This document shows positions 253 through 19,525 of a stretch of 19,525 nucleotides of DNA, piece by piece. The position numbers were made by a program, and so were the translations under genes. Below the pieces are notes generated by a model. It was not told where the DNA came from. It did no database searches and saw only the letters and a list, made by a program, of their open reading frames with translations. The DNA comes from Candidatus Tectimicrobiota bacterium (lineage in GTDB: Bacteria > UBA8248 > JACPRG01): contig JACPRG010000066.1 of assembly GCA_016190025.1 (NCBI GenBank), forward strand, positions 1-19,525, written 5' to 3'. Positions within the stretch are counted from its first letter, which is position 1; the number at the start of each line of letters is the position of its first letter.

Positions 253-275
253 ATCGATAGCGAAAGGCAGTCCTA

Positions 276-1763: not shown

Positions 1764-1930
1764 GTGACACCCTTCCGCATCGATGCCGTCGGATCTTCGC
1801 CGGGCGCGCCGGGTGAGGCGAAAGCCTGCCCCCCTTACGCGTCGGTTCGACCCGTCCGGTCCGGGCAGAGCGGGCCAGTCCGGGCCACATTGGGCCGGAG
1901 ACAGGTCGCGCCGATGCCGCGGGGGCCGCC

Positions 1931-2941: not shown

Positions 2942-3087
2942 CTTCTCCTCCTTTCCGCCGGCGGGAATGATCCCCCCGGACATTCCCGGAACCTGAAAAG
3001 GGGGTTGTCCGGGCTGGAACCGAGCGCCCGGGACTCCTGAAAAACAGTCGGGCAACCGGTGTGCGACGCGGTCCGCCGCGAGGGCAT

Positions 3088-4356: not shown

Positions 4357-4551
4357 GGGTGTGGTGCTCCCAGGTGTCTGCGGCCCCGGTGGGTTCCCAG
4401 TTCAGGAAAACCCGCGCCCCGAGGCTCCCGTTCTGTCGTTCCGGAGGACGACAAATGATAACGGTGAGCGTCGGGTCAGTCAAGGGACGACTGTGGACAG
4501 ACCCCGAACGGAAGAATACCCATCCGTCCCCATTGCCCGGAGCGGAGCCGC

Positions 4552-5619: not shown

Positions 5620-5769
5620 CCTTGTTCCTCCGTCCCCCGGGGTTGGAAAACGCCCTGATCTTGCGAGGCCCGGCGACGGCCTCCGCGATCGGCTTTCAGT
5701 TCCGTCGAACGGCTTTGCCTGGGGTTCATGGGGGTCTTCCCGCGCGCGGTTCGGTGCGGCCCTCGCAGA

Positions 5770-5778
5770 AGTATACCA
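5770..5778 (-). promoter_or_regulatory. Possible extended -10 promoter for the alpha/beta hydrolase
   Basis: Read on the minus strand this is TGGTATACT, matching the extended -10 pattern TGnTATAAT with one change. It lies about 150 bases upstream of the hydrolase start, in the 192-base gap after the CMD-like gene, within otherwise very GC-rich DNA. No good -35 box is seen, which is tolerated for extended -10 promoters. It suggests that the hydrolase and the genes after it can be transcribed separately from the genes before it. Confidence 0.35.
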
Positions 5779-5811
5779 TTGCGGCGGGGTCCGGCGCGGG
5801 CGAGAGGGCGG

Positions 5812-6228
5812 CTACTTGCCCGGGTCGCCGAACCCCAGGACCGGACTCTCCGCTTTCCGGAACCGCTCGAACTCGTCCAGGGCGGTCAGGGAGGCCGCCA
5901 TGCCCCCGTAGACCGCCATCTGAAGGACGACCTCGCGGATCTCCTCGTCGGTCGCGCCGTAGTTCCGGCAGGCCTGGAAGTGGGCCCGCAGCTGGGGGAA
6001 GTATCCCGCGACCGTCAGGGCGGCGACGGCGCAGAGCTCCCGCGTCTTGTGGTCGATCACGTCCCGGTCGTACATCCCTCCGTAGACGAAGGCCTGGAAG
6101 AGCTGCGAGAACTCGGGGTCGATGGAGTTCAGCCGGTCGAGGATGCGCTGGGTGTACACCTCGCCGTAGTTCTTGCTCCCCCGGGCGAAGGCCTTCGGGT
6201 TGTAGGGCGGCTGGACCGACTCGCTCAT
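5812..6228 (-). CDS. Carboxymuconolactone decarboxylase (CMD) family protein
   Basis: A 138-residue all-helical protein of the CMD/AhpD superfamily. The family core spans about residues 58-120 (DHKTRELCAVAAL, RAHFQACRNYGATDEEIREV, YGGMAA). It keeps the His83 and Cys87 neighbourhood, but has no CxxC thiol pair as in AhpD peroxidases, so it resembles the 4-carboxymuconolactone decarboxylase branch. True decarboxylase activity on carboxymuconolactone is not implied; in catabolic islands such proteins often have unassigned roles in ring-product processing. The ATG at 6228 follows a strong GGAGGAGA site. It lies 73 bases after the nitrilase-like gene and probably in the same transcript. The tail after residue 125 (LGFGDPGK) is ordinary. 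Family call strong, reaction unknown. Confidence 0.85.
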   Translation of the reverse strand: MSESVQPPYNPKAFARGSKNYGEVYTQRILDRLNSIDPEFSQLFQAFVYGGMYDRDVIDHKTRELCAVAALTVAGYFPQLRAHFQACRNYGATDEEIREVVLQMAVYGGMAASLTALDEFERFRKAESPVLGFGDPGK

Positions 6229-6301
6229 CGCGTTCTCCTCCGTTCGGTTTGTCCGTTGCGGCTGGTTGTCCGCTGGATGCGGCGTGGCGCCCGTCGGCCT
6301 C

Positions 6302-7147
6302 TCAGCGCGTCAGCTCCGCGTAGAGGTCCGGGCGGCGGTCCCGGTAGAAGCCGTACATGTTCCGCAGTTCCTCAATGAGGGCCGGGTCCACCTCCCCGTA
6401 GATGATCTCATCGTCCTCATCCCCGGCGCCGGCGAGGATCTCCCCGCGGGGGCTCACGAACATCGCGCTCCCGTAGTAGTGGTTCCGGTTGTTCACCCCG
6501 CGGTCCACCCCGACCTTGTTGACGCCGCCCACGTAGTAGGCGTTCTGGTAGGCGTAGGCGCGCAGCTCGATCTCCCACAGGGGCCGGTAGTGCCGGCCGA
6601 AAGAGGCGGTGGGCACCAGTAGGAGATCCGCCCCGCGCAGGCCGAGGATCCGCGGGCCCTCGGGGAAGTGGCGGTCGTTGCAGATCACCATCCCGAACCG
6701 GATCCCCCACGGGGTGTCGAAGACGGGGTAGCCCAGGTTGCCCGGCTTGAAGTAGAGCTTCTCGTTGCCGGAGGGGTTCTCGGGGCGCTTGGCCATGGGG
6801 ATGTTGGTCTTCCGGTACACCCCCTGGATCGACCCGTCCGGGTTGATCACGGCGGCCGCGTTGTACAGCTCCCCCCGCATCGCCTTCTCGTAGAGGGGGA
6901 GGACGACGACCATCCCGTATTCCCGGGCGACCTCGGCGACCCGCCCGGTCGCGGGGCCGGGGATCGGCTCCGCCAGGGCGCAGTGGTCGTAGTTCTCCTC
7001 GTAGCAGAAGTAGGTGGTCGTGCAGAGCTCGTGGAAGCAGATCAGGTTCGCCCCGTTGTCGCCCGCCTGCCGCGCGTAGCGCAAGACGTTCTGGATGTTG
7101 GCCTCTTTGTCGACGTCTCCGATGAACTGGCAAAGCGCCACCTTCAT
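6302..7147 (-). CDS. Nitrilase-superfamily amidohydrolase (N-carbamoyl amino acid hydrolase-like)
   Basis: A 281-residue C-N hydrolase with the complete nitrilase triad: Glu40 (FHEL), Lys113 (YRKTNIP) and Cys156 (VICNDRHFPEG). The latter context and the TASFG and NHYYGSAMFVSPRGEIL segments resemble beta-ureidopropionase and N-carbamoyl amino acid or N-carbamoylputrescine amidohydrolases more than true nitrilases. It would release ammonia (and CO2 for a carbamoyl substrate) from an amide or ureido intermediate in the cytoplasm. The frame is open far upstream, but ATG at 7147 is chosen because AGGAGG precedes it by 8-9 bases and family members begin with this KVALCQ strand. It follows the amidohydrolase by 59 bases. 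With a ring-opening amidohydrolase and an aminotransferase beside it, it matches the middle step of a reductive-pyrimidine-like route, which is inference. Confidence 0.88.
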   Translation of the reverse strand: MKVALCQFIGDVDKEANIQNVLRYARQAGDNGANLICFHELCTTTYFCYEENYDHCALAEPIPGPATGRVAEVAREYGMVVVLPLYEKAMRGELYNAAAVINPDGSIQGVYRKTNIPMAKRPENPSGNEKLYFKPGNLGYPVFDTPWGIRFGMVICNDRHFPEGPRILGLRGADLLLVPTASFGRHYRPLWEIELRAYAYQNAYYVGGVNKVGVDRGVNNRNHYYGSAMFVSPRGEILAGAGDEDDEIIYGEVDPALIEELRNMYGFYRDRRPDLYAELTR

Positions 7148-7206
7148 GGATGGAATCCTCCTGTGCCCCCCGGAGGCTCGCCGGGCGCCCGGACGGCCGT
7201 CTCGTT

Positions 7207-8478
7207 TCAGTCCCTGCGGACCCTGACCTGGCCCTCCAGCATGACCATCTTGATGCGGCTCGCGTCCTGGAGGACCTTGATGTTCTTCAGGGGGTCGCCG
7301 TCGACCAGGATGAGGTCGGCCAGCTTTCCCTTCTCGACGGTCCCCAGTCGCGCGTCCAGGTTGAAGAGCTCGGCGTTCCGCCGGGTGGCCGTCACCAGGG
7401 CTTCCATCTCGCTGAGGCCGCAGCGGACCTGCATCTCCAGCTCGAAGGCCTCCTCGCCGTGCGGGTCCGCCGGCGTGCCGAGGAAGTCGCTGCCCGAGGC
7501 CCGCTTGACCCCCATCTTCTTGGCCCGGGGCGTGGTGTCGGCGATGGATTCCACGGCCCGCTTGCACTTGTCCACGTAGATGGGGCTCAGGTTCAGGTCC
7601 TTGCCGTGCTCCACGGCCCGCTGCAGGTAGCCGATGGTCGCGATCCACACCACGCCCTTCTCGGCCATGAGCTCCAGCGTGGGGTCGTCGATCCAGTAGC
7701 CGTGGTCGATGGCGTCCACCCCGCCCACGATGGCCTTGCGGATTCCCGTGCAGGGCTCCCCCATCAGGACGTTGTTGTGGGCGGTGATCTTCTTGCCCAC
7801 GTTGTGGGCGACCGACGCCATGGCCCGGATCTCCTCCACGGTGAAGGCGGACTCGGCCACGATGAAGGACGGGTCGATCCCGCCCGTGGTCCCGATCTTC
7901 AGCTCCGTCGCCCCGCCCCGCAGCTGCTCCCGCGCGGCCTTCAGGCACTCGTCCACCCCGTCGGTCAGGCGGCAGAAGCCGCGGCCGTCCCGCCCCTCCA
8001 TGACGGAGAGGGGGAGGAAGGGCAGGTCGGGGATCCCCCCCGTCTGGCACATGAACCGGCCGACCGCCCGCAGGCGGGGCCCCGCGATGCTCCCCTCCTC
8101 GATGGCCTGCTTGATGAAGAGGGCGTTGTCGCTCCCGCAGTCCCGGACGGTGGTGAACCCCGCCTCCAGGATCCGCCGGACCTCGTAGACGCTCCGGATG
8201 GCGTGGAGCGCGACGTGCTCCATGGCCCACAGAAGGAACTCGTACCTCCGGATACCGAAGAAGTGCAGGTGCGCGTCGATGAGCCCCGGCATCAGGGTCA
8301 TCCCTTTGGCGTCGATGACCTCGGCCCTCGGGGGGGCCTGGACCTGGCTCGCCGGGCCCACCGCAGAGATGGCGTCTTTCTGGATGACGACCGTCGCCTT
8401 CTCGAGGGGCTTTGCGCCGGTCCCGTCAATGACGCGGGCGTTCTGAATGACCTTCGTCTGGCCGTCTGCTTTCGCCAT
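7207..8478 (-). CDS. Binuclear metal-dependent amidohydrolase (imidazolonepropionase/prolidase-like subgroup)
   Basis: A 423-residue amidohydrolase-superfamily member. The N-terminal beta-sandwich (VIQNARVIDGTGAKPL) leads into DAHLHFFG (H70, H72). A lysine that could be the carbamylated bridging residue is in ELKIGTTGG (K194), and H234 (TAHNN), H259 (IDHG) and D331 (SGSDF) complete a typical HxH-K-H-H-D site. The sequence closes with GTVEKGKLADLILVDGDPL. This pattern is shared by the Xaa-Pro/Xaa-Arg dipeptidase and imidazolonepropionase-related enzymes that hydrolyse cyclic or linear amides. The start ATG at 8478 has GGGAGAGGA upstream. It lies 30 bases downstream of the aminotransferase and 59 bases before the nitrilase-like gene, so it is almost surely co-transcribed with them. 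The likely role is opening of a lactam or cleavage of an N-acyl bond; substrate unknown. Confidence 0.87.
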   Translation of the reverse strand: MAKADGQTKVIQNARVIDGTGAKPLEKATVVIQKDAISAVGPASQVQAPPRAEVIDAKGMTLMPGLIDAHLHFFGIRRYEFLLWAMEHVALHAIRSVYEVRRILEAGFTTVRDCGSDNALFIKQAIEEGSIAGPRLRAVGRFMCQTGGIPDLPFLPLSVMEGRDGRGFCRLTDGVDECLKAAREQLRGGATELKIGTTGGIDPSFIVAESAFTVEEIRAMASVAHNVGKKITAHNNVLMGEPCTGIRKAIVGGVDAIDHGYWIDDPTLELMAEKGVVWIATIGYLQRAVEHGKDLNLSPIYVDKCKRAVESIADTTPRAKKMGVKRASGSDFLGTPADPHGEEAFELEMQVRCGLSEMEALVTATRRNAELFNLDARLGTVEKGKLADLILVDGDPLKNIKVLQDASRIKMVMLEGQVRVRRD

Positions 8479-8508
8479 CGTCGTCCTCTCCCTGCGTGCG
8501 CCGTCCCG

Positions 8509-9861
8509 TCAGGCCGGGCCGGCGAGGTCGCGAAAGAATGCCTCCGCCACTTCGAGGAAGCGGTCGATCTCGGGTTGCTGCGTCACCGTCGAGAGGCAGC
8601 CCCGGGCGAGGGTGTTGATGAACACCCCCCGGTTGAGGGCGTAGAGGAACATCAGACGCTCCAGCTCCCGGTTGGAGGTGTGGGCCGAGCGGGAGTCGGT
8701 GATCTCCTCGCCCGTGAAGTGGAGCTTGAAGAGGGAGCACTCCCCCGTGACCTGGACCGGGATCCCGGCGGAGCGGACGAGCTCCCGCAGGTTCCGCCGC
8801 AGGTATTCCCCGTCGGCCGCCATCCGCCCGAAGGCGTCCTCGTCCAGGAGCCCCAGCGTCGCCACGCCGGCCGCCATCGTGACCGGATTGGCATTGAACG
8901 TCCCGGCGTGCGGGATGCGCGTGCGCCCCGAGGTGGGGTCGAACAAGGCCATGACATCGGCCCGCCCGCCCAGGCCGCCGACGGGCAGGCCCCCGCCGAT
9001 GATCTTCCCGAGGGTGGTGACGTCCGGCGCGACGCCGAAAAAGCCCTGGGCCCCGGCCTTGGAGAGGCGGAACATCATGACCTCGTCGAAGACGAGGAGC
9101 ATGCCCAGTTCCCGGGTGAGGTCCCGAAGCCCCTGCAGGAAGCCCGGCCGGGGGGAGATCATCCCCGCCGAGCCCATCACCGGCTCGATCAGCACCCCGG
9201 ACACCTCGCGCGCCAGGGGCCGCAGGCGCTCGGCGACCGCCTCCAGGTCGTTGAACGGCAGGACGACCACGTTGCCGATCACCTCGGGCGGGATGCCGTC
9301 CGAATCGGGGACCGCCCGCGGGAACCGGCGGTCGCCGGCGGCCTCCGCCGAGGGGTGGACGCTGACGCTCACGTCGTCGAAGGAGCCGTGGTAGCCCCCC
9401 TCGAACTTGGCGATCTTCGGCCTTCCGGTGAAGGCCCGCATCGCCCGCACGGCCATGACGTTGGCCTCGGTCCCGCTGTTGCAGAACCGGACGCGCTCCA
9501 CCGACGGCAGCCGCTCCACCAGGATCTCGGCCAGGCGGATCTCCCATTCCGTGGCCGAGGCGAAGGCCGTCCCAAAGCCGGCCACCTCCTGGATGGCGCG
9601 GACGACCTCGGGGTGGCTGTGGCCGTGGATGAGGGAGGTGGCGTTGTTGAACAGGTCGACGCGGACGTTGCCGTCCACGTCCCACAGGCGCGGTCCTTCC
9701 CCGCGCGACACGTACAGGGGGAAGGGGGGAAAGTAGGTCAGCGTCCGCGTGCTGCCGCCGGGAAGGGAGCGGACCGCCCGCTCGTAGAGCGCGCGCGCGC
9801 GCGGGTTCTGTTTCGCATAGGTCTCCTCTTCCCGGCGCCGGATCTCGGTCAAGGGGGTCAC
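8509..9861 (-). CDS. Class III PLP-dependent aminotransferase, glutamate-1-semialdehyde aminomutase-like
   Basis: A 450-residue fold-type I PLP enzyme. Seen are the N-terminal LPGGSTRT segment, DVDGN, NSGTEAN (129-134, phosphate binding), GGYHG (155-159), FDEVMMFR with the ring-contacting Asp259, TTLGKIIGGGLPVGG with Schiff-base Lys286, and HAGTFNANPV. These resemble HemL, but HemL-like relatives in catabolic clusters act on beta- or omega-amino acids, and the neighbours here are catabolic rather than tetrapyrrole genes, so I do not use the name hemL. The start is GTG at 9861, one base after the TAG stop of the upstream amidohydrolase, with AGGAGA 8 bases before it, so translation is probably coupled. 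It may deaminate an amine released by the hydrolases or rearrange an amino aldehyde. Family call firm. Confidence 0.9.
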   Translation of the reverse strand: MTPLTEIRRREEETYAKQNPRARALYERAVRSLPGGSTRTLTYFPPFPLYVSRGEGPRLWDVDGNVRVDLFNNATSLIHGHSHPEVVRAIQEVAGFGTAFASATEWEIRLAEILVERLPSVERVRFCNSGTEANVMAVRAMRAFTGRPKIAKFEGGYHGSFDDVSVSVHPSAEAAGDRRFPRAVPDSDGIPPEVIGNVVVLPFNDLEAVAERLRPLAREVSGVLIEPVMGSAGMISPRPGFLQGLRDLTRELGMLLVFDEVMMFRLSKAGAQGFFGVAPDVTTLGKIIGGGLPVGGLGGRADVMALFDPTSGRTRIPHAGTFNANPVTMAAGVATLGLLDEDAFGRMAADGEYLRRNLRELVRSAGIPVQVTGECSLFKLHFTGEEITDSRSAHTSNRELERLMFLYALNRGVFINTLARGCLSTVTQQPEIDRFLEVAEAFFRDLAGPA

Positions 9862-9862
9862 G

Positions 9863-11161
9863 CTAGGGGTCTCCTGAAAGGGGGGCCGGTCTCCGGGGAG
9901 GCGCCGCCGGTTTTCCGCCCCCCTCCCATGCGGACCACCGCGCGACCTCCGCCCTCGCGATCACCCGGCCCCGGCGGATGACGAAACGCCGCGGAGGGGC
10001 CAGCCGAAAGGCGTCCCGCACGCACTCCACCGGCGTGATGACCAAATCCGCCCGGCAGCCGGGCGCCATCCCGTAGTCGGGGAGGGCCAGGACCTTGGCG
10101 GCATTCTCCGTCGCCATGTCGTACAGGACCTCCAGGTCCCGCCGGCTCCCGAACTGGGCCGCGTAGGCGGTGAGGAAGCCGGTCTTGAGGGGGTCGGCGT
10201 CGCCGAAGTTTTCGTTGAACGGGTCCAGGACGTTGTCCTGGGCGAAGGCGATGTTGACCCCGGCTTGCAGGAAGTCCTTCACCCGGGTGATCCCGCGGCC
10301 CCGGGGCTCCGGGTAGAGGCGCGCGCCCAGCATGGTGGTGGTGGGCGGACAGGTGGTGATGCTCATCCCGGCGCGTCTCACCGTCTCGATGACGTGCGCC
10401 GCCTCGTAGGGGTCGTAGTAGGGAAGGGCGGACACGTGGCCCGCGGCGACCCGGCCGTTCCATCCCTCCTGGAGGGTCTTCCAGGCGGTGTAATGCAGGT
10501 AGCGGGTCTGGGGCGAATAGCGGATGTCCAGGTGCATGTCGATGGGGCGGTCGAAGCGCCGGGCCAGCGCGAAGACCCGGTCGATGTGCCGGCGGCCGGC
10601 CTCCTCGTGGAGCTCTTCCTCCGGAAAGCCGCCCACCACGTCGGCCCCCATCCGGAGGGCCTCCTCCAGGAGGTCCTCCGTCCCCGGGTCCGCGAAGATG
10701 CCGTGCTGGGGCATCGCGACGACCTGGAGGTCCGCGTAGTCCGCCATCTTCTCGCGCAGGGCGAGGATCGCCTCCAGCCCCCGGAGGCCGGCAGCCGTGT
10801 CCACGTCCACGTGGGTTCGAACGGCCGTCGCGCCCGCCGCCAGCGCCCAGCCCAGCACGACCTGGGCGCGCTCCAGGACGTCCCCCACGGTGAAGCGGCC
10901 CTTCTCGGCCCGGAGGTTCCTTCTGGCCTCCTCCGAGGACAGGCTGACGTTGGGCGGCATGCGGTCGCTGATGAGGGCCTTGTCCAGGTGCGTGTGAGGC
11001 TCGACGAAGGCGGGGGTCGTCAAGTGCCCGGCGGCGTCGAGGGTTTCCCGGCCGTCGGGCGGCAGGTCCGGGGCGATCTCGGCGATGCGCCCCTTCCGGA
11101 TCCCTACGCACAGGAGACCGGAATGGCCCCGCAGACGCGCGTTTCGGATGAGGAGGTCCAT
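9863..11161 (-). CDS. CodA/cytosine deaminase-like amidohydrolase
   Basis: A 432-residue amidohydrolase taken from ATG 11161, where the conserved N-terminal strand MDLLIRNARL begins; the frame is open to 11299 but that extension looks non-homologous. No strong ribosome site is seen. Motifs follow the cytosine deaminase group: EPHTHLDK (H56, H58), HVDVD, MHLD (H210), AGHVSAL (H242) and AQDNVLDPF (D309), the last very like CodA. CodA has HCDE at the third His, and its Glu is the proton shuttle; here the residue after HLD is Ile, so the Glu seems absent. This argues against plain cytosine deamination and for a related hydrolysis, as in AtzC-like N-alkyl amidohydrolases. It is the first gene of the minus-strand cluster and diverges from the monooxygenase gene. 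The C-terminal 25 residues are Pro/Ala/Arg-rich and probably disordered. Confidence 0.85.
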   Translation of the reverse strand: MDLLIRNARLRGHSGLLCVGIRKGRIAEIAPDLPPDGRETLDAAGHLTTPAFVEPHTHLDKALISDRMPPNVSLSSEEARRNLRAEKGRFTVGDVLERAQVVLGWALAAGATAVRTHVDVDTAAGLRGLEAILALREKMADYADLQVVAMPQHGIFADPGTEDLLEEALRMGADVVGGFPEEELHEEAGRRHIDRVFALARRFDRPIDMHLDIRYSPQTRYLHYTAWKTLQEGWNGRVAAGHVSALPYYDPYEAAHVIETVRRAGMSITTCPPTTTMLGARLYPEPRGRGITRVKDFLQAGVNIAFAQDNVLDPFNENFGDADPLKTGFLTAYAAQFGSRRDLEVLYDMATENAAKVLALPDYGMAPGCRADLVITPVECVRDAFRLAPPRRFVIRRGRVIARAEVARWSAWEGGGKPAAPPRRPAPLSGDP

Positions 11162-11385
11162 GGGCGCCCAGTCGGCCGGAGTCCCGGCCCTGGAGGAATG
11201 CGCTAAGACGGCCCCCCCGTCTCTCATCTGTCTTGAGACCGGTACCGTCCCTTGTCGGTCCGTGGGAAGTATGCTAACCTTTCCCCGTTTCGACTTCAAG
11301 GTTGACCGCCGACGGGGCAGGGATTCGGTCCAGATTCTGGATCAGGAGAGGGTTGGCTTGTCCTTGTCCTGGGAGGGATGCAGAG
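11162..11385. promoter_or_regulatory. Divergent intergenic control region
   Basis: This 224-base gap separates the divergent CodA-like and monooxygenase genes and should carry promoters for both sides. On the minus strand TTGAAG (11294-11299) and TAGCAT (11270-11275) are 18 bases apart, a plausible -35/-10 pair. A dyad TCAA-GG-TTGA lies at 11296-11305, inside a wider inverted repeat CCCCGT (11283-11288) and ACGGGG (11312-11317). The dyad overlaps the proposed -35 and could be an operator. All of this is read by eye and weakly supported. No riboswitch was recognised. Confidence 0.3.
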
Positions 11386-12345
11386 GTGATCCGCTTCGGC
11401 GCTTTTCTTCCGGGGTTCGGCTATCCGGCCATCAGCATGGACTTTTTGAAAGAGGCCGCCCAGGAAGCCGAGGCCCTCGGCTACGAATCTCTCCAGCTGC
11501 CCGACCACCCCATCTACACCGAGGGCCTCGCCGCCTTCGGCCAGAAGGGGCTCTATGACCCCATCGTCGCCATGTCCCAGCTGGCGGCCGTCACCCGACG
11601 GATCAAGGTGGGGACGGCCGTGCTCCTGGTGCCCCTTCAGAACCCCTTTCTCCTGGCGAAGGCGATCTCCACCCTCGACCAGGCCTCGGGCGGCCGGGTG
11701 GAACTGGGGGTCGGCATCGGCGCCTACGAGCCGGATTACAAGGCCACAAACGTCCCCTATCGAACCCGGGGCCGGGCCTTCGACGAGATTCTGGATCTCT
11801 TGGTCCGCCTCTGGACGGAGGATGAAGTGACCCACCGGGGCGAATTTTTCCAGATGGACAAAGTCACCCTGGAGCCCAAGCCGGTTCAAAAGCCCCATCC
11901 GGGCCTGTGGTTCGGAGGCGGGGTCCGCAAGACCTGGGAGCGCGCGGCGCGCCTGGGCGTGGGGTGGGGGCCCTGGGCGCCGACCCTGGAACACATGGCG
12001 GAGGGGATCGGGGCCATCCGGGAGATGGCGAAGACGGCCGGCCGGGACCTGTCGAACTTCCGCTTCATCTGTGAGGCGTGGACGGCCGTTGATTATGATA
12101 TAAAGAGGGCGGAAGACGCCGTCCGTCCCGCGCTGGCCTATTTCCAAAAGCATCACGCCATGGACGTCGGCATGGATTTCATGCACGAGAACTCCTTCAT
12201 CGGCCCGCCCGAGAAGATCGCGGACCGGATGCAAGAGTTTGTCGAGGTGGGGGTCAACGAGTTTCACTTCGCGTGTTGCCCTTGGGAACGTTGCCGGGAA
12301 GGGATGCGGTTGGTGGCCGAGAAGGTTCTGCCGCGGTTTCGGTGA
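11386..12345 (+). CDS. Luciferase-like flavin/F420-dependent monooxygenase
   Basis: A 319-residue protein of the bacterial luciferase-like (LLM) superfamily with a TIM-barrel fold. Family landmarks are IRFGAFLPGFG at the N-terminus, AQEAEALGYESLQLPDH, VAMSQLAAVTRRIKVGTAVL, QASGGRVELGVGIGAYEPDY (near 95-120) and PHPGLWFGGG. The start is GTG at 11386, preceded by GGGAGG about 9 bases upstream; the frame is open back to 11302 but that part is not LLM-like. Members use reduced flavin or F420 to oxygenate or reduce a substrate; RutA of pyrimidine breakdown and alkanesulfonate monooxygenase belong here. The gene leads an operon with an ABC importer whose binding protein starts 78 bases downstream, which suggests that it oxidises the imported compound. 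Flavin versus F420 cannot be decided from sequence. Confidence 0.87.
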   Translation: MIRFGAFLPGFGYPAISMDFLKEAAQEAEALGYESLQLPDHPIYTEGLAAFGQKGLYDPIVAMSQLAAVTRRIKVGTAVLLVPLQNPFLLAKAISTLDQASGGRVELGVGIGAYEPDYKATNVPYRTRGRAFDEILDLLVRLWTEDEVTHRGEFFQMDKVTLEPKPVQKPHPGLWFGGGVRKTWERAARLGVGWGPWAPTLEHMAEGIGAIREMAKTAGRDLSNFRFICEAWTAVDYDIKRAEDAVRPALAYFQKHHAMDVGMDFMHENSFIGPPEKIADRMQEFVEVGVNEFHFACCPWERCREGMRLVAEKVLPRFR

Positions 12346-12423
12346 CGGAGACCCGTCGGCTGTGAGTTCGACGCTGCGCTGCCGTTGGAACCCTTTGGGA
12401 ACAGGGGGAGGGAGGCAGGGAAA

Positions 12424-13407
12424 ATGAAAAGAAGGCTCGGTTTGATTTTGGCTGTCTTGGCGTCGGTGGGGCTGTTCTGGACTTCGGGTCCGTCGGCGGC
12501 CGCCGAGAAGATTTCGGTGGTCGTCAACCCGTCCTTCGGCTTCGCCTTCATTTTTGACCTCAACCGGTTCGCGAAAAAGTACGACCTCGAATTGACCTTC
12601 CGCCGGATGGCGACCTTCGGCCAGCAGCAGCAGGCCCTGGAGTTGGGGCAGGCGGACGTGGGGACCATTGGATACCAGAACCTGGTCCTCATGGCGGTGG
12701 CCGGGGGGGCCCCCAAGGCCCAGGCCGTCGCCGGGGTTTACCTCTCGGGGCAGGACGTGGTCTTCAACAAGAACGTGAAGATCACGAAGTGGAAGGACAT
12801 CGAGGGGAAGACCATCGCCCGCATTCCGGGCACCTTCGCCGAGTTCCTCTTCCGGGCCGCGGCCATCCACAACGGGGTGGACCTGAGCAAGGTCAAGCTG
12901 AAGGACTTCGCCTACTCGCCCTCCACCCTGACCCTGAGCCTGGAGCGCCGGGACATCGATGGCCTCGTCATCTGGGTTCCCACGCTGGCCTACCCCATCG
13001 CCAAAGGGGTCGGCTACCGGCCGCCCATCAGCGTGAACGACACGCCGGTGGGGAACATCAACGCCCTGTTCGCCGCGAGCCGGAGCTTCATCGAGGGCCG
13101 GCCGGACGTGTTGGTGAAGCTGATGAAGGCCTACGTAGAGGCGGTCGATGCGTACGTGAAGGACCCCGACATCTGGGTGAAACAGGCCCGGGCTATCACC
13201 GGGGCGGAGCAGGACGTGCTCAAAGAGTCGCTCAACCACATCACCCTCCATGCCAAGATGTATCCGGCGCGGGCCCGCGAGCTTGCCAAACTGTCCCATT
13301 CGCTTAATATGGTGAAGAAAGACGTGAGCGGGACCATCACGCAATGGATGAGATTTGATTTCCTCCAGAAGGCGACCGGCAAGAGCCTGAAGGAATTGGG
13401 CGGCTGA
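12424..13407 (+). CDS. NMT1/THI5-like ABC transporter substrate-binding protein
   Basis: A 327-residue exported binding protein. ATG at 12424 is chosen over an earlier ATG because it starts a clear signal peptide (MKRRLGLILAVLASVG, probable cleavage after PSAAA near residue 26) and follows a GGGAGGGAGGCAGGG ribosome site. The mature domain has the family pattern: KYDLELTFRRMATFG, QALELGQADVGTIGYQN, KITKWKDIEGKTIARIPGTF, then a second lobe with RSFIEGRPDVLVKLMKAYVEA. Ligands in this family range from pyrimidines and sulfonates to nitrate and aromatic acids. A strong stem-loop follows the gene at 13414-13446, before the permease, an arrangement that commonly keeps the binding protein in excess over the membrane parts. 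It is unlike the minus-strand binding protein in sequence, so the two probably differ in ligand. Confidence 0.88.
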   Translation: MKRRLGLILAVLASVGLFWTSGPSAAAEKISVVVNPSFGFAFIFDLNRFAKKYDLELTFRRMATFGQQQQALELGQADVGTIGYQNLVLMAVAGGAPKAQAVAGVYLSGQDVVFNKNVKITKWKDIEGKTIARIPGTFAEFLFRAAAIHNGVDLSKVKLKDFAYSPSTLTLSLERRDIDGLVIWVPTLAYPIAKGVGYRPPISVNDTPVGNINALFAASRSFIEGRPDVLVKLMKAYVEAVDAYVKDPDIWVKQARAITGAEQDVLKESLNHITLHAKMYPARARELAKLSHSLNMVKKDVSGTITQWMRFDFLQKATGKSLKELGG

Positions 13408-13413
13408 AGGCGC

Positions 13414-13446
13414 CGGGGGAGGAGGGAAGAGGCCCCTCCTCCCCCG
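13414..13446 (+). other. Strong intercistronic stem-loop
   Basis: GGGGGAGGAGGG (13415-13426) pairs perfectly with CCCTCCTCCCCC (13434-13445) around a 7-base loop, and C13414-G13446 extends the stem to 13 base pairs. There is no following T-tract, so it is probably not a full terminator. Between a binding-protein gene and its permease it more likely protects the upstream mRNA from 3' decay or attenuates readthrough. Confidence 0.65.
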
Positions 13447-13481
13447 CGTCGTCGGATCCGAAAAGGGGGGCGGGTCGTTCC

Positions 13482-14264
13482 ATGAAGAGCAAGAACTACC
13501 AAAAGGTCATCGTCCCCATCGTCTTTCTTATCATTTGGCAGCTGGTCACGATGGCCGGGATGCTCGACCCCAAATACACCCCCTCCCCCATCCAGGTCGT
13601 CCGCGCCTGGGGGGAGTGGATCTTCGGCTCCGCGGAAGACCCTTCCCTGTGGTACTCGAAGACGTGGCTCCTCCACCTGGAAGGGAGCTTCTACCGGGTC
13701 ATCATCGGGTTCGTCATCGCCAGCCTGGTCGGGGTCTTCCTGGGCGTTCTTATCGGCTGGTTCTCGCTCGTCTCCAACCTCTTCGACCCGTTCATCCAGC
13801 TCCTGCGTCCCATTCCCGTCACGGCCTGGCTTCCTTTCGCCATTGTCTTCTTCGGCATTCGGGACCCCTCGGCCATTTTCCTGATCGCCTTCGGGGCCTT
13901 TTTCCCCATCGTCGTGAACGCGGCCGCGGGGGCGCGGGGGGTTCCGAAAGTCCTGATCCGGGCGGCGCTCATGCTGGGGACCAAGCCGAGGACGCTTCTG
14001 TCGCGGGTGGTCATCCCCACCGCCCTCCCCTCCATTTTCACCGGCCTGCGGTTGGGCGTGGGCCTCGCCTGGGTCCTGGTCATCGTGGCGGAGATGCTGG
14101 CCGTGGACTCCGGGCTGGGCCGCGCCCTGTGGACCGCCTACGAGTTCATCCGCATGGACCTCATCGTGGCCGCCATGGTGAGCATCGGGCTGATGGGGTT
14201 TCTGTGCGATCAGCTCATTGTGCTCATCCGCGACCGGGTTCTCCGCTGGGCCATAGGCATCTAG
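13482..14264 (+). CDS. ABC transporter permease, SsuC/TauC-like
   Basis: A 260-residue inner-membrane protein with about six hydrophobic segments; the first is VIVPIVFLIIWQLVTMAGM. The BPD_transp_1 domain covers roughly residues 70-250. The EAA loop that contacts the ATPase is seen as RAALMLGTKPRTLLSRVVIPTALPSI written in two parts: RAALMLGTKPRTLLS then RVVIPTALPSI, with the conserved Gly and the I-x-x-ALP end. It belongs to the group serving NMT1/THI5-type binding proteins (sulfonate, taurine, nitrate, pyrimidine importers). The start ATG at 13482 follows GGGGGGCGGG at a usual distance. The gene ends with TAG 5 bases before the ATPase start, so the two are translationally coupled. Presumably a homodimer, since only one permease gene is present. 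Confidence 0.9.
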   Translation: MKSKNYQKVIVPIVFLIIWQLVTMAGMLDPKYTPSPIQVVRAWGEWIFGSAEDPSLWYSKTWLLHLEGSFYRVIIGFVIASLVGVFLGVLIGWFSLVSNLFDPFIQLLRPIPVTAWLPFAIVFFGIRDPSAIFLIAFGAFFPIVVNAAAGARGVPKVLIRAALMLGTKPRTLLSRVVIPTALPSIFTGLRLGVGLAWVLVIVAEMLAVDSGLGRALWTAYEFIRMDLIVAAMVSIGLMGFLCDQLIVLIRDRVLRWAIGI

Positions 14265-14269
14265 TCACG

Positions 14270-15100
14270 ATGGAAACGCCTTCTCCCCCGCCTGCGGGCA
14301 TTCTGATCCGGTGTCAGGGCCTTCGGAAATGTTTCCGGGACATCTCCGAGGGGAAGGAGATCGAAGCGCTGCAAGACCTGACCCTGGAGGTGAGGGAGCG
14401 GGAGTTCCTCACGATCCTGGGGCCGAGCGGGTGCGGGAAATCGACCCTCCTCAACATCATCGCCGGCTTCGAGAAGCCTACCGCGGGCGAGGTGATGCTC
14501 GACGGCCGCCCCATCCGGGAGCCGGGGGCGGACCGGGGCGTGGTGTTCCAGGAATATGCCCTGTTCCCCTGGCTGACGGTCTTGGACAACGTCTGCTACG
14601 GTCTCCGGGAAAAGGGCATTCCGCGCCGGGAGCGGATCGAAAGGGCCCGGACGTACCTGAAGGCGGTGGGGCTGGAGGACTTCGAGCGGCGCTATCCCCA
14701 CGAGCTGTCCGGGGGGATGAAGCAGCGGGTCTCCCTCATCCGGGTGCTGGCCAACGACCCCCAGATCCTGCTGATGGACGAGCCGTTCGCCGCGCTGGAC
14801 GCCCAGACCCGCAAGGACCTCCAGCGGGAGCTCATCGCCCTCTGGCAGGAGACCCACAAGACCATCCTCTTCATCACCCACAACGTGGAGGAGGCCGTCT
14901 ACCTGGGCGACCGAGTCGTGGTCATGACCGCCCGCCCCGGACGGGTCAAGCGGATCCTCGAAATCCCCCTGGAGCGCCCGCGGGACGAAACCGCCCCCGA
15001 CTTCAACCTCCTCCGCCGGGACGCGACCCGCCTGGTGGAGGAGGAGCTGAAGGGCTGGCAGGCCGCCCTCCTGGGCGGGTTCGGCCGGACGACGCCGTGA
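14270..15100 (+). CDS. ABC transporter ATPase, SsuB/TauB-like
   Basis: A 276-residue nucleotide-binding subunit. Walker A is GPSGCGKST (51-59), the Q-loop is Gln94 (VVFQEYALFPW), the signature is LSGGM (146-150), Walker B is ILLMDEP (166-172) and the switch His is 204 (ITHNVEEA). The frame is open far upstream, overlapping the permease, but the ATG at 14270 begins the domain with a short 12-residue lead and lies 5 bases after the permease stop. No clear ribosome site is present there, so coupling to permease translation is likely. It powers import together with the permease and the binding protein just upstream, and possibly with the minus-strand binding protein as well. The last 30 residues (VEEELKGWQAALLGG) are typical for this family. 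Confidence 0.92.
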   Translation: METPSPPPAGILIRCQGLRKCFRDISEGKEIEALQDLTLEVREREFLTILGPSGCGKSTLLNIIAGFEKPTAGEVMLDGRPIREPGADRGVVFQEYALFPWLTVLDNVCYGLREKGIPRRERIERARTYLKAVGLEDFERRYPHELSGGMKQRVSLIRVLANDPQILLMDEPFAALDAQTRKDLQRELIALWQETHKTILFITHNVEEAVYLGDRVVVMTARPGRVKRILEIPLERPRDETAPDFNLLRRDATRLVEEELKGWQAALLGGFGRTTP

Positions 15101-15306: not shown

Positions 15307-15822
15307 ATGACAACAGAAAAGAGACCCATGCGCATCGGGGCTCTCGCCCGGGAGGCGGGAGTCCCGGCCAAGACCATCCGCTACTATGAGGAGATCGGCC
15401 TCCTCCCCGGAGTCCCCCGGACCGAGGCCGGATACCGCCTGTACGGGCCGGAAGCAGTGGATTTGCTCCGGTTCATCCGAAAGGCCCAGGGCCTCGGGCT
15501 CTCTCTGGGCGAGATCCGGGAGCTGGCCGAGATCCGCGCGGGCGGGAGCCTTCCCTGCGCCCACCTGCGGTCCCTGCTCGCGGCCAAGGTAGCGGAGCTC
15601 GACGCGCGCATCCGCGCGATGAAGAGGCTGCGCGATGAAATGCAAGGGACGCTCCGGACCTGGGACCGGCGGGTGAAAAGCGGCCGGGAGGCCGTGGTCT
15701 GCCCCCACATTGAAGGCCGGCCCGAGGGGGAGTCTCCGCCGCAAGGCGCGGCGAGGGCGAGCCTGAGGGAGGCGAGAAGGCCGCTCCGTCCGACCGCTTC
15801 GCGCCTGCGGGGAGATCGCTGA
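15307..15822 (+). CDS. MerR-family heavy-metal-responsive transcriptional regulator
   Basis: A 171-residue regulator. The N-terminal winged helix-turn-helix is IGALAREAGVPAKTIRYYEE (10-29 region) followed by GYRLYGPEAVDLLRFI, and the dimerisation helix spans about 85-118. Candidate metal ligands are Cys84 and His86 (LPCAH) and Cys132 with His134 (VVCPHIE). In CueR the residue matching Cys84 is Ser and there are two C-terminal Cys; here Cys is present at the first site, as in ZntR/PbrR/MerR, and only one C-terminal Cys is visible. The ligand set therefore does not assign a metal although the operator looks CueR-like. The tail after residue 140 is Arg/Ala-rich and of low complexity, longer than usual. 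The ATG follows GAGGAGGAGG. The stop lies one base before the ATPase GTG start, so the pair is coupled. Confidence 0.92.
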   Translation: MTTEKRPMRIGALAREAGVPAKTIRYYEEIGLLPGVPRTEAGYRLYGPEAVDLLRFIRKAQGLGLSLGEIRELAEIRAGGSLPCAHLRSLLAAKVAELDARIRAMKRLRDEMQGTLRTWDRRVKSGREAVVCPHIEGRPEGESPPQGAARASLREARRPLRPTASRLRGDR

Positions 15823-15823: not shown

Positions 15824-18268
15824 GTGCCCACGGAAAAGCTTCATTTGCGGCTGGGCGGGATGCACTGCTCCTTCTGCGCGGAGACCATCCGCAAGGGCCT
15901 GGGCCGCATGGAGGGGGTCCGGGAGGTCAGCGTCAGCCTGGCCCACGAGGAGGCCCTCATTCACTACGACCCGGAGAAGCGAAGCCCTACGGAGTTGTTG
16001 GACGCCCTGCGCGACCTGGGCTTCACGACCTCGGACCCCAAGAAGGCGCGCACCCATGAAGAAGAGGAGGCCGAGCTGCGGCGCGAGAAGGATCGGCTCG
16101 TCCTGACGGGCGCCCTCGCCTGGATGGCTTTTGTGAGCATGGTCCTCATGTGGGTGGGGAAGCCCCACCCCTGGACGCCGTGGGCCATGATGGCGCTTGC
16201 GCTCATCACGGTTTTCGGCCCGGGGCTCTACATCCTCCGCATGGCCGTCGGCTCGGCCCGGCGGGGGATCTTGAACCAGCACTTCCTCATGGAGTTCGCC
16301 GCCTTCGCGGGCCTCGCGGGGGGCTTCCTGGGCCTCGTCTACCCCGCCTTCCCTTCGCCGGACTTCTTCGGGGTGGCGGTCTTCGTGACGGCCTACCACA
16401 TCCTGAGCGGCTACACCTCCCTCCTCGTGCGCACCAAGGCCTCCCAGGCCGTTCGCAAGCTCTTGAGCTTGCAGCCCGCCACGGCCCGGGTGGTGCAAAA
16501 CGGGAGAGAGGAGGAGGTCCCGGTCGAAGCGATCCCGCCCGGGGCGCTGGTGCGCATCCGCCCCGGCGAACACGTGCCGGTAGACGGCGTGGTGGCCGAG
16601 GGCCACTCGACGGTGGACGAGAGCCTGGTCACGGGAGAGCCGATTCCGAAGGAGAAAGGCCCGGGCGAAGAGGTGATCGGTGGCTCGCTCAACCATCACG
16701 GAAGCCTTCTCGTCCGGGTGACCCGGGTGGGGGAGGAGAGCTTCCTCTTCCGGGTCGCCCGGAGCATCGAGGAGGCGCGCGCCCTCAAGCCGGGCATCCT
16801 CCTCCTCGCCGAGCGGGTCCTGCTCTACTTCGTGCCGGGGGTCCTCGCCTTCGCCGGCGGCGCCTTTCTCTTCTGGGCGGCCGGGGCCTGGCTCCTGTGG
16901 GGTTCGCCCCTGTGGGCGCGCGCGGGCTTCGCGGCCCTGGCCGTCCTGGTCATGGGATACCCCTGCGCCTTGGGCATGGCCACGCCGCTCGCCTTGATCA
17001 ACGCGGGGGGGGAGGCGGCGCGCCGGGGCATCCTGCTGCGGAGCGGCGAGGCCATCCAGGCCTACAAGGACGTGTCCGTCTTCGTCTTCGACAAGACGGG
17101 GACGCTCACGGAGGGGAAGCCCTCCGTGGCCGAGATCGTCCCCCTCGGAGGCCGAGCCTCCCAAGAGATCCTCCAGACGGCGGCCAGCCTGGAGAACGCC
17201 TCCGAGCACCCCTTGGCCGGGGCGATCGTGACGCGCGCGGAAGAAGAAGGGCTTGAGCTTCTCCCATCCGAAGACTTCCGGGCCGTTCCAGGCCGCGGGG
17301 TCCGCGGGCGCGTGGCGGGGAAGGAGACCTGGGTCGGCACGCTGCGCTTCCTGGCGGAGGAGGGTGCGGATGTCCGCGAGGTCCAGAGGATTGCGGGAGA
17401 GTTCGAGGCGAAGGGCCTCACGGTGGTCGGCCTCGCCGAAAGCGCCGAGGTGACGGGCCTCTTCTGCCTCTCCGACCGGATCAAGGAGGACACCCAAGAG
17501 ACGGTTGAGCGCCTCCGGCGCATGGGCCTCGAGACGGTCATGATCACAGGGGACAACCGGCGGACGGCCGAGCGGGTGGCGGAAGAGCTCGGCATCGAAG
17601 AGGTCCTCGCCCAGGTCCTCCCCCAGGACAAGTCCGAGCGCGTGCGCCAGATCCAGCGCCAGGGCAGGCGCGTCGCCTTCGTCGGGGACGGCATCAACGA
17701 CGCGCCCTCCCTGATGCAGGCCGACGTGGGCCTCGCCATCGGCTCGGGCACGGACATCGCCATCGAGTCGGCGGACATCGTCCTCGTGGGCGAGCGGATG
17801 GGGTCGGTCTACGAATCCTTCCTCATCGCCAAGCGCAGCTACCGAAAGACGGTCCAGAACATCGCCCTGGCCTTCGCCTTCAACGGCCTCGGCGTCCCCC
17901 TCGCGGCGACGGGCGTCGTCGAGCCGGTGTGGGCCATGATCGCAATGGCCGCCAGCGTGGGGACCGTGCTCCTCAACTCCTTCGGCGGGCGGCTCATTCC
18001 CAAGGGCCGGGAGAGCGCCCCGGAGGGGCGCCCCGGGGAGGCGGAGGGGGTCTCCGGAGAGGCCCGGACCCTCGCCTTCACCGTGAAGGGGATGCACTGA
18101 CACGGCTGCCTTTCGGCCATCGAGCGGGCGCTCGATACGATTCATGGGGTGGTCAGGGTGGAAGGCGATCCCCGGACGAAGCGGCTGGAGGTGCGCATCC
18201 AGGACGAGACCGCCGGGGAGGAGGTGGTCCGGGTCATGAAACAGATCGGTTACCCGGTGGAGGGCTGA
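15824..18268 (+). CDS. P1B-type heavy-metal ATPase, predicted selenoprotein with in-frame UGA
   Basis: Predicted 814 residues, reading TGA at 18098-18100 as selenocysteine 759; without recoding it ends at 758. Order: N-terminal HMA domain (GGMHCSFC, Cys15 and Cys18), membrane segments from about 92, actuator TGE (270-272), TM6 with YPC (379-381), DKTGT (Asp423), HP (462-463), TGDN (575-578), GDGIND (621-626), TM7 with Phe686-Asn687, TM8 with Met708 and Ser711. A second HMA domain follows at about 747-814: FTVKGMH, then UGA, then HGCLSAIERAL, HGVVRVEGD and QIGYPVEG. The TGA stands at the first Cys of GMxCxxC, giving Sec759-x-x-Cys762, and the 55 codons after it are fully open and HMA-like. P1B ATPases export soft metals; TM7 and TM8 look copper-like while TM6 lacks the first Cys of CPC. 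GTG start at 15824 with GGGGAG upstream. Family certain; recoding strongly supported but unproven; metal unknown. Confidence 0.85.
18098..18100 (+). other. In-frame UGA, predicted selenocysteine codon
   Basis: The triplet TGA follows GGG ATG CAC and precedes CAC GGC TGC, so the encoded motif is G-M-H-U-H-G-C. The equivalent N-terminal domain of the same protein reads G-M-H-C-S-F-C. TGA differs from Cys codons TGC and TGT by one base. It is the only stop triplet between the GTG start and 18266 in this frame. Other genes here end in TGA, so the triplet is not generally reassigned. Confidence 0.8.
18101..18136 (+). promoter_or_regulatory. Predicted bacterial SECIS element
   Basis: ATCGAGC (18119-18125) and GCTCGAT (18130-18136) form a perfect 7-bp stem with the tetraloop GGGC (18126-18129). 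The loop begins after 25 bases counted from the UGA. Published bacterial SECIS rules ask for an apical loop about 16-37 bases after the UGA, a short stem of at least 4 bp and a G among the first two loop bases; all three are met. The element would bind the selenocysteine elongation factor SelB. The stem lies in codons of the HMA helix (IERALD), so it is compatible with coding. Confidence 0.75.
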
Positions 18269-18272
18269 TTCG

Positions 18273-18926
18273 GTGTGGGACGCGGTCCGTTTCGCCGGAA
18301 TCCCGCTGGGGTTCGGTCTCATCGGCTTCTTCGAGCCCTGCTCGATGGGGGCGAACCTTCTCTTCCTCGCCTACCTCCGGGGCCGGTCTCCCGGCGAGCG
18401 CGTCGGACACGCCTTGGCCTTCGTCCTCAGCCGCTCCTTTTTCCTCGGTCTCCTGGGGGGCGCCGTCGCCTGGCTGGGCGGGTCCATGGCCGCCGGCGCT
18501 TATCTCTACAGCGCGGGCCTGGGGGCCCTTTTCGCGCTGTCGGGCCTCGCGGCGCTGGGGGTCTATTTCGGCTGGCTGCGCCTTCCGGTGAAAGACGTGG
18601 GCGCCTGGCTCCAGAGGAGGGCGGGCCTGTCCCTCCCCATGGGCGTGGCCTTCGGGCTGAGCGCGCCCATTTGCGCCGCCCCCCTGTTCTTGGCCCTGCT
18701 CGGGCAGGCGGGCGTCGCCGGCGCCGCGAGAGGGTTCCTCTCCCTGTTTCTGTTCGGCTTCGCCCTGTCTGCGCCCCTGCTCGCCGTCGCGGCGTCCGGC
18801 CGGGCGTCCGAGTTTCTTTCCCGCGTCGGGCGGCACTCCCCGCGGATGCCCCTGGTCGCGGGGGTCTTCTTGCTGATCGTCGGCCTGTGGAGTCTCGTCA
18901 TCGGTTGGGGGGGTGTCCGGGTCTAG
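18273..18926 (+). CDS. CcdA/DsbD-like transmembrane protein
   Basis: A 217-residue integral membrane protein with about six hydrophobic segments, resembling the CcdA/DsbD transmembrane domain that passes reducing equivalents from cytoplasmic thioredoxin to the outside. The paired cysteines expected in the first and fourth helices are Cys23 (FFEPCSMGANLL) and Cys134 (SAPICAAPLFL). The first motif lacks the downstream Pro of the usual PCxxP, so it belongs to a divergent group. The start is GTG at 18273, 8 bases after GGAGGG (18259-18264). That ribosome site lies inside the last codons of the selenocysteine extension, so ribosomes that read through the UGA would pass directly over it. The gene probably works with the ATPase in metal handling or in redox care of its Sec/Cys site. 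A generic transporter of similar topology is the alternative. Confidence 0.8.
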   Translation: MWDAVRFAGIPLGFGLIGFFEPCSMGANLLFLAYLRGRSPGERVGHALAFVLSRSFFLGLLGGAVAWLGGSMAAGAYLYSAGLGALFALSGLAALGVYFGWLRLPVKDVGAWLQRRAGLSLPMGVAFGLSAPICAAPLFLALLGQAGVAGAARGFLSLFLFGFALSAPLLAVAASGRASEFLSRVGRHSPRMPLVAGVFLLIVGLWSLVIGWGGVRV

Positions 18927-18992: not shown

Positions 18993-19525
18993 ATGCATCG
19001 CTCGGCCAGAATCGCGGTGATCGCCGCCGTCGCCTTCACGGGCTACGCCGTCGGGTTCTACGTCCAGCCCCCCGCGGCGCCGGGGCAGGGGATGGGCATG
19101 AGGCCCGCGGGAGGTGAGGCTCCGGCCGTGCCGCCCGTCACGGGGTACAGCGAAGGGGAGAGGATCCTCTTCCTGCACACGGAGACCTCGGACCCCAAGA
19201 TCGCCAAGATCCTCACGGACATGATGGGATCGCCCGTCCTGGTCGTTCCGTCCCTCGCCCAGGCGCCGCCGGAGATGCTTGCCCGCGAGTACGTGTACGC
19301 CAACGTCGTGAAGGGCGACGGGCCGCTGGGCCCCCTCGGCTTCCAGCCCGACGTGTTCGAAAGCCCGCCGGGGTCCGGGGGATACAGCCCGCTGCGGCGG
19401 GTTATCCTGGTCAAGTGGAAAGACGCCTCGGCCGCGCGCGTCCAGAAATCGGCCGCCGAGGTGCGGGAGGCCGCGCAGAAAGGGGAAATAACGCTCGAGG
19501 AGACCGGCGTCGTGGTGAACATGCC
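18993..19525 (+). CDS. Signal-anchored or secreted conserved protein, C-terminus beyond window
   Basis: The frame is open from ATG 18993 to the window edge, 177 residues so far. A GGGAGGGAGA site precedes the start. An N-terminal hydrophobic stretch (ARIAVIAAVAFTGYAVGFYV, about 5-24) should be a signal peptide or anchor. It is followed by a Pro/Gly/Met-rich linker (QPPAAPGQGMGMRPAGGE). The outer domain begins at GERILFLHTETSD and contains KILTDMMGSPVLVVPSL, then SPLRRVILVKWKDAS and EITLEETGVVVNM. I recall this last pattern from an uncharacterised domain of secreted proteins, sometimes found with cupredoxins, but I cannot name it with certainty. It starts 66 bases after the CcdA-like gene and probably shares the metal-induced transcript, which points to an extracytoplasmic role in metal handling. 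Function unknown. Confidence 0.75.
   Translation, partial: MHRSARIAVIAAVAFTGYAVGFYVQPPAAPGQGMGMRPAGGEAPAVPPVTGYSEGERILFLHTETSDPKIAKILTDMMGSPVLVVPSLAQAPPEMLAREYVYANVVKGDGPLGPLGFQPDVFESPPGSGGYSPLRRVILVKWKDASAARVQKSAAEVREAAQKGEITLEETGVVVNM

What the first reader, a model, noticed from the sequence alone, without database searches (positions are those of the whole stretch)
15824..18268. Metal-transporting P1B ATPase predicted to be a selenoprotein (Sec-x-x-Cys in a C-terminal HMA domain)
Seen: TGA at 18098-18100 replaces the first Cys codon of a canonical GMxCxxC metal-binding motif, and the same frame continues for 55 codons that complete an HMA domain (IERAL, HGVV, V-x-V, QIGYPVEG) before a real stop. 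Known: Sec often substitutes for redox or metal-binding Cys in CxxC motifs, and I recall small Sec-containing mercury-transport-type proteins from metagenome surveys (unchecked). Inference: the ATPase uses Sec for tighter or faster binding of a soft metal. Standard annotation would truncate it to 758 residues and lose the second metal-binding domain. I do not know of a characterised P1B ATPase of this kind.
Basis: partly seen in the sequence, partly recalled or inferred. Interest (0 to 1): 0.95.

Follow-up and report, generated by a model that had tools for sequence, protein, structure and literature searches.

The report
Selenium-containing metal pump, annotation truncated
A bacterial metal-pumping protein very probably uses the rare selenium amino acid selenocysteine at one metal-binding site, encoded by a UGA that gene annotation mistakes for a stop; selenium-containing pumps of this broad type had already been predicted.

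Summary
Observation confirmed. TGA 18098-18100 lies in frame at the first metal-binding Cys of a C-terminal HMA domain, and 55 further codons complete the domain. Two other genomes carry TGA at the same codon. Of the 120 listed homologues, 7 (one is the window's own entry) end exactly before it and 113 have Cys there. Post-TGA codons are under purifying selection. A hairpin fitting the bacterial SECIS model follows, identical in three genomes. Relatives carry tRNA-Sec, SelA, SelB and SelD; SelD has its own in-frame TGA in 14 of 14 genomes where found. Only 2 of 52 HMA matches in 18 related genomes contain a TGA: this domain. The window's own genome is not held.

[quoted passage not shown] Apparently distinct here: a YPC-type P1B ATPase with HMA domains at both ends, Sec in the C-terminal one, next to a MerR regulator and a DsbD-like protein. 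The metal, the transport direction and the benefit of Sec are inferred.

The parts
15307..15822 (+). MerR-family regulator, immediately upstream of the ATPase (stop 15820-15822, next start 15824)
   Evidence: Pfam MerR_1 73.7 bits and MerR-DNA-bind 67.7 bits; best NCBIfam CueR 87.6 bits, below its cut-off 147.4, ZntR/CadR/MerR models score almost the same; 68% identical copy upstream of the ATPase in G004
15824..18268 (+). P1B metal ATPase, 814 aa when TGA 18098-18100 is read as Sec
   Evidence: TIGR01525 548.4 bits, cut-off 346.25
15848..16024 (+). N-terminal HMA domain, GGMHCSFC, residues 9-67, ordinary Cys
   Evidence: Pfam HMA best stretch 9-67; both Cys in 119 of 121 aligned rows, gap in 2
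16958..16966 (+). TM6 metal motif Tyr-Pro-Cys (residues 379-381) in place of Cys-Pro-Cys
   Evidence: Y and C in 121 of 121 aligned rows (window read through plus 120 hits)
18065..18262 (+). C-terminal HMA domain, residues 748-813, strand-helix-strand-strand-helix; only the first strand lies before the TGA
   Evidence: Pfam HMA 43.2 bits; fold prediction, pLDDT 85-91 for residue blocks 751-810
18098..18100 (+). In-frame TGA, codon 759, probable selenocysteine, in KGMH-U-HGC
   Evidence: same codon in G001 and G004; Cys in 113 of 120 listed homologues, the other 7 end just before it
18119..18136 (+). Candidate SECIS hairpin: 7 bp stem, loop GGGC, 25 nt between TGA and loop
   Evidence: -9.2 kcal/mol, identical in 3 genomes; 8 of 8 silent sites identical at codons +6 to +13 against 290 of 539 elsewhere
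18266..18268 (+). Actual stop codon (TGA)
18273..18926 (+). DsbD_TM-like membrane protein
   Evidence: Pfam DsbD_TM 23.0 bits, below its cut-off 27.1; 70% and 67% identical copies near the ATPase in G001 and G004
18993..19523 (+). DUF7482 protein, runs off the window end
   Evidence: Pfam 67.1 bits; 71% identical copies in G001 and G004

Best explanation
The gene encodes an 814-residue P1B-type metal ATPase in which UGA at codon 759 is decoded as selenocysteine by SelB and tRNA-Sec, guided by a hairpin 19-36 nt downstream. The Sec replaces the first ligand of a CxxC soft-metal site in a second, C-terminal HMA domain. Shown by sequence: conserved UGA, coding conservation past it, a conserved hairpin, Sec machinery in relatives, a full HMA domain only on read-through. 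Inferred: the Sec-Cys pair binds a soft metal ion, most likely Cu(I) or Ag(I), possibly Hg(II), and loads or gates the pump, which belongs to a MerR-controlled metal-handling gene group. The metal, the transport direction and the advantage of Sec over Cys are not established.
For: TGA at the same codon in 3 genomes. Cys at this column in 113 of 120 listed homologues, and the remaining 7 (including the window's own entry) end just before it. The Sec rows form one side of a branch with support 100. Post-TGA dN/dS 0.153/0.684, 0.144/0.436, 0.103/0.323 in the three pairs. Hairpin meets the published stem, loop and spacing limits and is conserved at silent sites. G001: tRNA-Sec with anticodon TCA on the ATPase's own contig, selA, selD. 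Phylum of G001: selB over cut-off in 14 of 18, selC 16 of 18, selD 14 of 18, each of the 14 selD with one TGA. 2 of 52 HMA matches in 18 genomes hold a TGA, both this domain. HMA fold completed only after the TGA.
Against: The window's own genome is not held, so its Sec genes were not tested. G001 has no selB over cut-off and G004 no selD at the limit used; both are drafts in pieces. For the rows P0005-P0008 only the protein end was seen, not the codon. Hairpin stability alone is not rare: 96 of 789, 71 of 849 and 44 of 731 codon positions and 92, 189 and 145 of 2000 synonymous shuffles do as well, and 6 of 7 ordinary TGA stops of the window also have some hairpin, one far stabler. Rfam shows no match. 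dN is somewhat higher after the TGA than before it. No expression or protein data.
Confidence: 0.85

Rival explanations
1. UGA is a genuine stop: this clade lost its C-terminal HMA domain and the downstream sequence is a decaying remnant.
For: Database annotation ends there in all 7 listed members; dN is somewhat higher after the TGA than before.
Against: The frame stays open and HMA-like in 3 genomes, dN/dS stays at about 0.22-0.33, HUxGC and the hairpin are conserved; 50 of 52 other HMA matches in these genomes have no stop.
Confidence: 0.04
2. UGA is read through, but another amino acid (for example Cys or Trp by near-cognate decoding) is put in, without Sec.
For: The nucleotide after the TGA is C in all three genomes, which I recall as a leaky stop context.
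Against: Replacement of a Cys, Sec machinery with Sec in SelD in relatives and a conserved hairpin at SECIS spacing all point to Sec. TGA ends 7 of 12 window ORFs checked, so it is not a general sense codon.
Confidence: 0.03
3. About the metal (can hold together with the best explanation): the pump handles a divalent soft metal such as Hg(II), rather than Cu(I)/Ag(I).
For: The MerR regulators of window and G004 have a Cys in LPC, which I recall as typical of divalent-metal sensors. G004 has a MerP-like HMA protein beside the ATPase. Both Sec genomes already have a CPC-type CopA. The TM6 motif is YPC, not CPC. TIGR01512 (cadmium type) also exceeds its cut-off, 382.6 against 313.5 bits.
Against: TIGR01511 (copper) scores higher, 447.5 against cut-off 397. 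S. solfataricus CopA, described as verified for Cu resistance, has YPC (passage of PMC4541151). CopAL6, YPC with HMA at both ends, changed Cu accumulation in E. coli (passages of PMC11082258). The best structural matches are mostly copper ATPases. The MerP score, 46.4 bits, is below its cut-off 92.55.
Confidence: 0.3
4. About novelty (can hold together with the best explanation): it is simply a further member of the published Sec cation-transporting ATPase family, with Sec at the same place.
For: Same motif UxxC and same broad family TIGR01525.
Against: C-terminal HMA domains are rare in P1B ATPases as far as I recall, so the published Sec is more likely N-terminal; this was not tested, as the original paper and sequence are not held.
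Confidence: 0.35

Closest known systems
[quoted passage not shown] representative ABB15669.1)
   Same: Predicted Sec in a UxxC motif of a P1B ATPase; TIGR01525 in the 2026 review (PMC13188914, section 7 part 1), also listed in PMC2398784, PMC9312934 and PMC5029168 (passages); our protein exceeds the TIGR01525 cut-off
   Different: Where the published Sec lies was not found; ours is in a C-terminal HMA of a YPC pump
Sec-containing small metal-binding proteins: NCBIfam NF041115 (UxxU metal-binding) and NF045683 (MerT/CopZ fusion-like selenoprotein)
   Same: Named by NCBIfam as selenoproteins or (seleno)proteins of the metal-binding HMA/CopZ kind
   Different: Separate small proteins; our domains score below the cut-off (whole pump 82.6 and C-terminal piece 32 bits to NF041115, cut-off 95); NF045683 was hit only by G004's MerP-like protein, 30.9 bits, cut-off 375
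CopAL6 (metagenomic CopA-like, PMC11082258)
   Same: HMA domains at the two ends and YPC in TM6, as described in passages
   Different: No Sec is mentioned in the passages; sequence not compared
CopA-type copper ATPases (P1B-1)
   Different: YPC instead of CPC, extra C-terminal HMA, Sec; both Sec genomes hold a separate CPC CopA

Membership tests
Bacterial selenoprotein | In-frame UGA conserved in relatives, with Cys in more distant homologues | tested here: met
   TGA in 3 of 3 genomes with DNA; Cys in 113 of 120 listed homologues, 7 end before it
Bacterial selenoprotein | SECIS hairpin: 4-16 bp stem, loop 3-9 nt with G in its first two places, 16-37 nt from UGA, energy at most -7.5 (limits from PMC13188914) | tested here: met
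   7 bp, loop GGGC, 25 nt, -9.2; not specific by itself
Bacterial selenoprotein | selA, selB, selC, selD in the same genome | tested here: inconclusive
   Window's genome not held. G001: selA, selC, selD yes, selB none over cut-off. G004: selB, selC yes, selD none at the limit, selA not searched
Bacterial selenoprotein | Selenium in the protein at residue 759 | not testable with these tools
   needs 75Se labelling or mass spectrometry
P1B (heavy-metal) ATPase | TIGR01525, DKTGT phosphorylation site, HMA domains, E1-E2 and HAD domains | tested here: met
CopA type (P1B-1) | CPC motif in TM6 (recalled as the P1B-1 hallmark) | tested here: not met
   YPC in 121 of 121 aligned rows
[quoted passage not shown]
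[quoted passage not shown]
   Original paper and sequence not held; position not given in the passages seen

The most novel reading that the evidence does not exclude
A separate subfamily of Sec ATPases: a YPC-type pump with HMA domains at both ends, in which Sec sits only in the C-terminal HMA and arose once from a Cys ancestor, so that UGA recoding adds or withholds a regulatory metal site (an 814-residue and a 758-residue product) and couples selenium supply to soft-metal transport.
Probability: 0.35. Interest if true: 0.75.

Novelty: new variant of a known kind. Interest (0 to 1): 0.58.

Why it matters
Most known selenoproteins with known function are redox enzymes (PMC2398784, PMC13188914 passages and sections). 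A Sec as a probable metal ligand in a transport ATPase, with Cys homologues at about 60% identity for comparison, would let one ask directly what selenium adds to soft-metal binding. It also shows a clade of pumps mis-annotated: the 7 listed database entries lack their second metal-binding domain.

Tried and rejected
Pseudogene or genuine stop: rejected on conservation of the post-TGA frame. Global TGA reassignment: rejected because TGA ends 7 of the 12 window ORFs checked, the ATPase's own end included. Stand-alone HMA protein started after the TGA: rejected because the post-TGA part lacks the first strand and the first ligand.

Searches that led nowhere: Rfam on 17900-18400, no match. Homologue search with residues 735-814 only: 196 candidates, none at E <= 0.001. 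A DNA pattern for Sec-HMA sites in another, unnamed phylum (that of G002): 2 of 396 genomes, neither an HMA protein on translation; a looser form matched 6 of 21 genomes, not followed. Viral contigs: 40 distant P1B relatives, not followed. A window permease used to place the organism: 3 of 18 genomes, 38-39% identity. L002, the other hit, carries KGMHCHGC with ordinary Cys at its N-terminus. The fold list covers model residues up to about 722, so it does not test the C-terminal HMA; that domain rests on Pfam, PDB sequence matches and the prediction itself. Position of Sec in the published Sec ATPases: not found.

What was dropped or partial: the tree (quick method) used 57 of the 113 Cys homologues (odd-numbered ids) and left out P0002 and P0004; of its 8 Sec rows 5 are proteins that merely end at the column. 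P0003 lies next to G004's protein on the tree and P0004 has the same C-terminus as G001's, so they are probably the same or very close organisms; about 7 distinct members are known, the window included, 3 with DNA. The homologues listed are the best 120 of 7935 hits. P0001, used in several searches, has one extra residue at its end, the real stop read as U/C.

Full report
What is there. On the + strand the window holds a MerR regulator (15307-15822), a P1B ATPase (15824-18268), a DsbD_TM-like protein (18273-18926, Pfam score below cut-off) and a DUF7482 protein (18993 to the end). The ATPase ORF is interrupted by TGA 18098-18100, in frame. Read through, it gives 814 residues with position 759 in KGMH-U-HGC. 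The 55 residues after it complete an HMA domain: Pfam HMA 43.2 bits for the 70-residue C-terminal piece, cut-off 24.8. The fold prediction (whole model: mean pLDDT 72.9, pTM 0.49) gives strand 748-754, helix 760-770, strands 776-782 and 787-792 and helix 795-807, with pLDDT 85-91 for blocks 751-810; residue 759 lies just before the first helix, where HMA domains hold their metal ligands (the last point is family knowledge).

Homologues. The protein search listed the best 120 of 7935 hits. Seven, at 76% identity or more and including the window's own entry, end exactly at VK[GS]MH. The other 113, at 57-64%, continue, and all 113 have Cys at the TGA column. DNA of two further genomes shows the codon itself: G001 (record title: Candidatus Tectomicrobia bacterium RIFCSPLOWO2_12_FULL_69_37, contig MGDP01000154.1) and G004, each with one TGA and an open frame after it. 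Of 18 genomes searched in that phylum, 2 have the ATPase at E <= 1e-150. In a quick tree that leaves out the C-terminal columns, the 8 Sec rows (3 with DNA, 5 proteins that end at the column) are one side of a branch with support 100, against 57 Cys rows, consistent with a single change.

Selection and RNA structure. In the three pairwise comparisons the post-TGA codons give dN/dS of 0.153/0.684, 0.144/0.436 and 0.103/0.323, so they look coding, though somewhat less constrained than the rest of the gene. A hairpin AUCGAGC-GGGC-GCUCGAU begins 19 nt after the TGA; it fits the published bacterial SECIS limits and is identical in three genomes. At codons +6 to +13 all 8 informative silent sites are identical, against 290 of 539 in the rest of the gene. 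By my arithmetic that is about 0.7% by chance, not corrected for choosing the stretch. Stability alone is not decisive: 96 of 789, 71 of 849 and 44 of 731 codon positions do as well, as do 92, 189 and 145 of 2000 synonymous shuffles, and 6 of 7 ordinary TGA stops in the window also have some hairpin by the same rule, one far stabler. The selD genes of three relatives have a hairpin of the same form at -7.1, a little short of the published -7.5.

Machinery. The window's genome is not held. G001 carries tRNA-Sec (anticodon TCA) on the same contig as the ATPase, selA at 550.6 bits and selD at 330.3 bits, the last with its own Sec codon, KAGG-U-GSK; no selB over cut-off. G004 has selB and selC but no selD at the limit used; selA was not searched there. 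Over cut-off in the phylum: selB 14 of 18, selC 16 of 18, selD 14 of 18; all three in 12 of 18, counted from those tables. All 14 selD matches have exactly one TGA. As a control for sporadic stops, 2 of 52 HMA matches in the 18 genomes hold a TGA, and both are this domain.

What kind of pump. All 121 aligned rows have Tyr-Pro-Cys in TM6 and F686, N687, M708 and S711. The copper model TIGR01511 and the cadmium model TIGR01512 both exceed their cut-offs. Both Sec genomes also hold an ordinary CopA with two GMTCASC HMA domains and CPC, so this is a second metal pump. MerR, DsbD-like and DUF7482 neighbours recur in G004, where about 3 kb lies between the ATPase and the DsbD-like gene; DsbD-like and DUF7482 recur in G001, whose contig ends inside the ATPase. 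G004 has a MerP-like HMA protein next to the ATPase, and one Cys homologue has a MerR DNA-binding domain fused to the pump. Two literature hints on YPC pumps, seen as passages only: S. solfataricus CopA (PMC4541151), and the metagenomic CopAL6, with HMA at both ends, which lowered Cu resistance and raised Cu accumulation in E. coli lacking copA (PMC11082258). Copper is therefore the likeliest metal, but mercury or another soft metal is not excluded.

What is known. [quoted passage not shown] 25 and 32 in its table, which I take as organisms and genes) and the 2026 review PMC13188914 (abstract and outline, section 5, parts 1-2 of section 7, one part of the reference list, passages), which credits the 2007 NAR paper on the Olavius symbiont (not held). 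The review says most such transporter selenoproteins are implicated in metal resistance and that Sec may be a metal ligand in some families (passage). NCBIfam has two related Sec families, NF041115 and NF045683. The deep-Sep paper PMC12013277 gave no passage on ATPases, copper or heavy metals. My paper searches (listings) showed no experimental study of a Sec P1B ATPase and none evidently about Sec in a C-terminal HMA; the library holds open-licence papers only. I call this a new variant because of the YPC pump with Sec in its C-terminal HMA. That the published members carry Sec elsewhere is a guess from the rarity of C-terminal HMA domains (recalled), not a result.

Verdict. Selenoprotein: very likely (about 0.93). 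The whole explanation with a soft-metal site in the pump: 0.85. Role of Sec: inferred. Interest is moderate to high because the case is clean and testable, held down because the broad kind was predicted long ago.

Noticed in passing
L015:1898-2662 and 2584-3198 (-): Two ORFs with repeated NPCAxKNPC motifs beside a cytochrome c gene, on the same contig as the Sec ATPase of G001; no Pfam match for the first, no NCBIfam match for the second.
   Followed up: no
P0017 (955 aa): A Cys homologue in which a MerR DNA-binding domain is fused to the front of the ATPase, a hint that regulator and pump belong together.
   Followed up: partly
L036:9886-10191 (-): MerP-like secreted HMA protein with CPFC directly downstream of the Sec ATPase in G004, followed by an outer-membrane-like protein (Phenol_MetA_deg) and a cyclase.
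   Followed up: partly
18993-19523: DUF7482 protein of unknown function kept beside the Sec ATPase in all three genomes.
   Followed up: partly
L019, L038, L039 and 11 further selD matches: SelD is itself a probable selenoprotein throughout the phylum: one in-frame TGA in 14 of 14 matches, KAGG-U-GSK in the three loci read.
   Followed up: yes
1-15100: The rest of the window looks like catabolic genes: amidohydrolases, an aminotransferase, ABC transporter parts with NMT1-like binding proteins; named from the translations by eye, no family search made.
   Followed up: no
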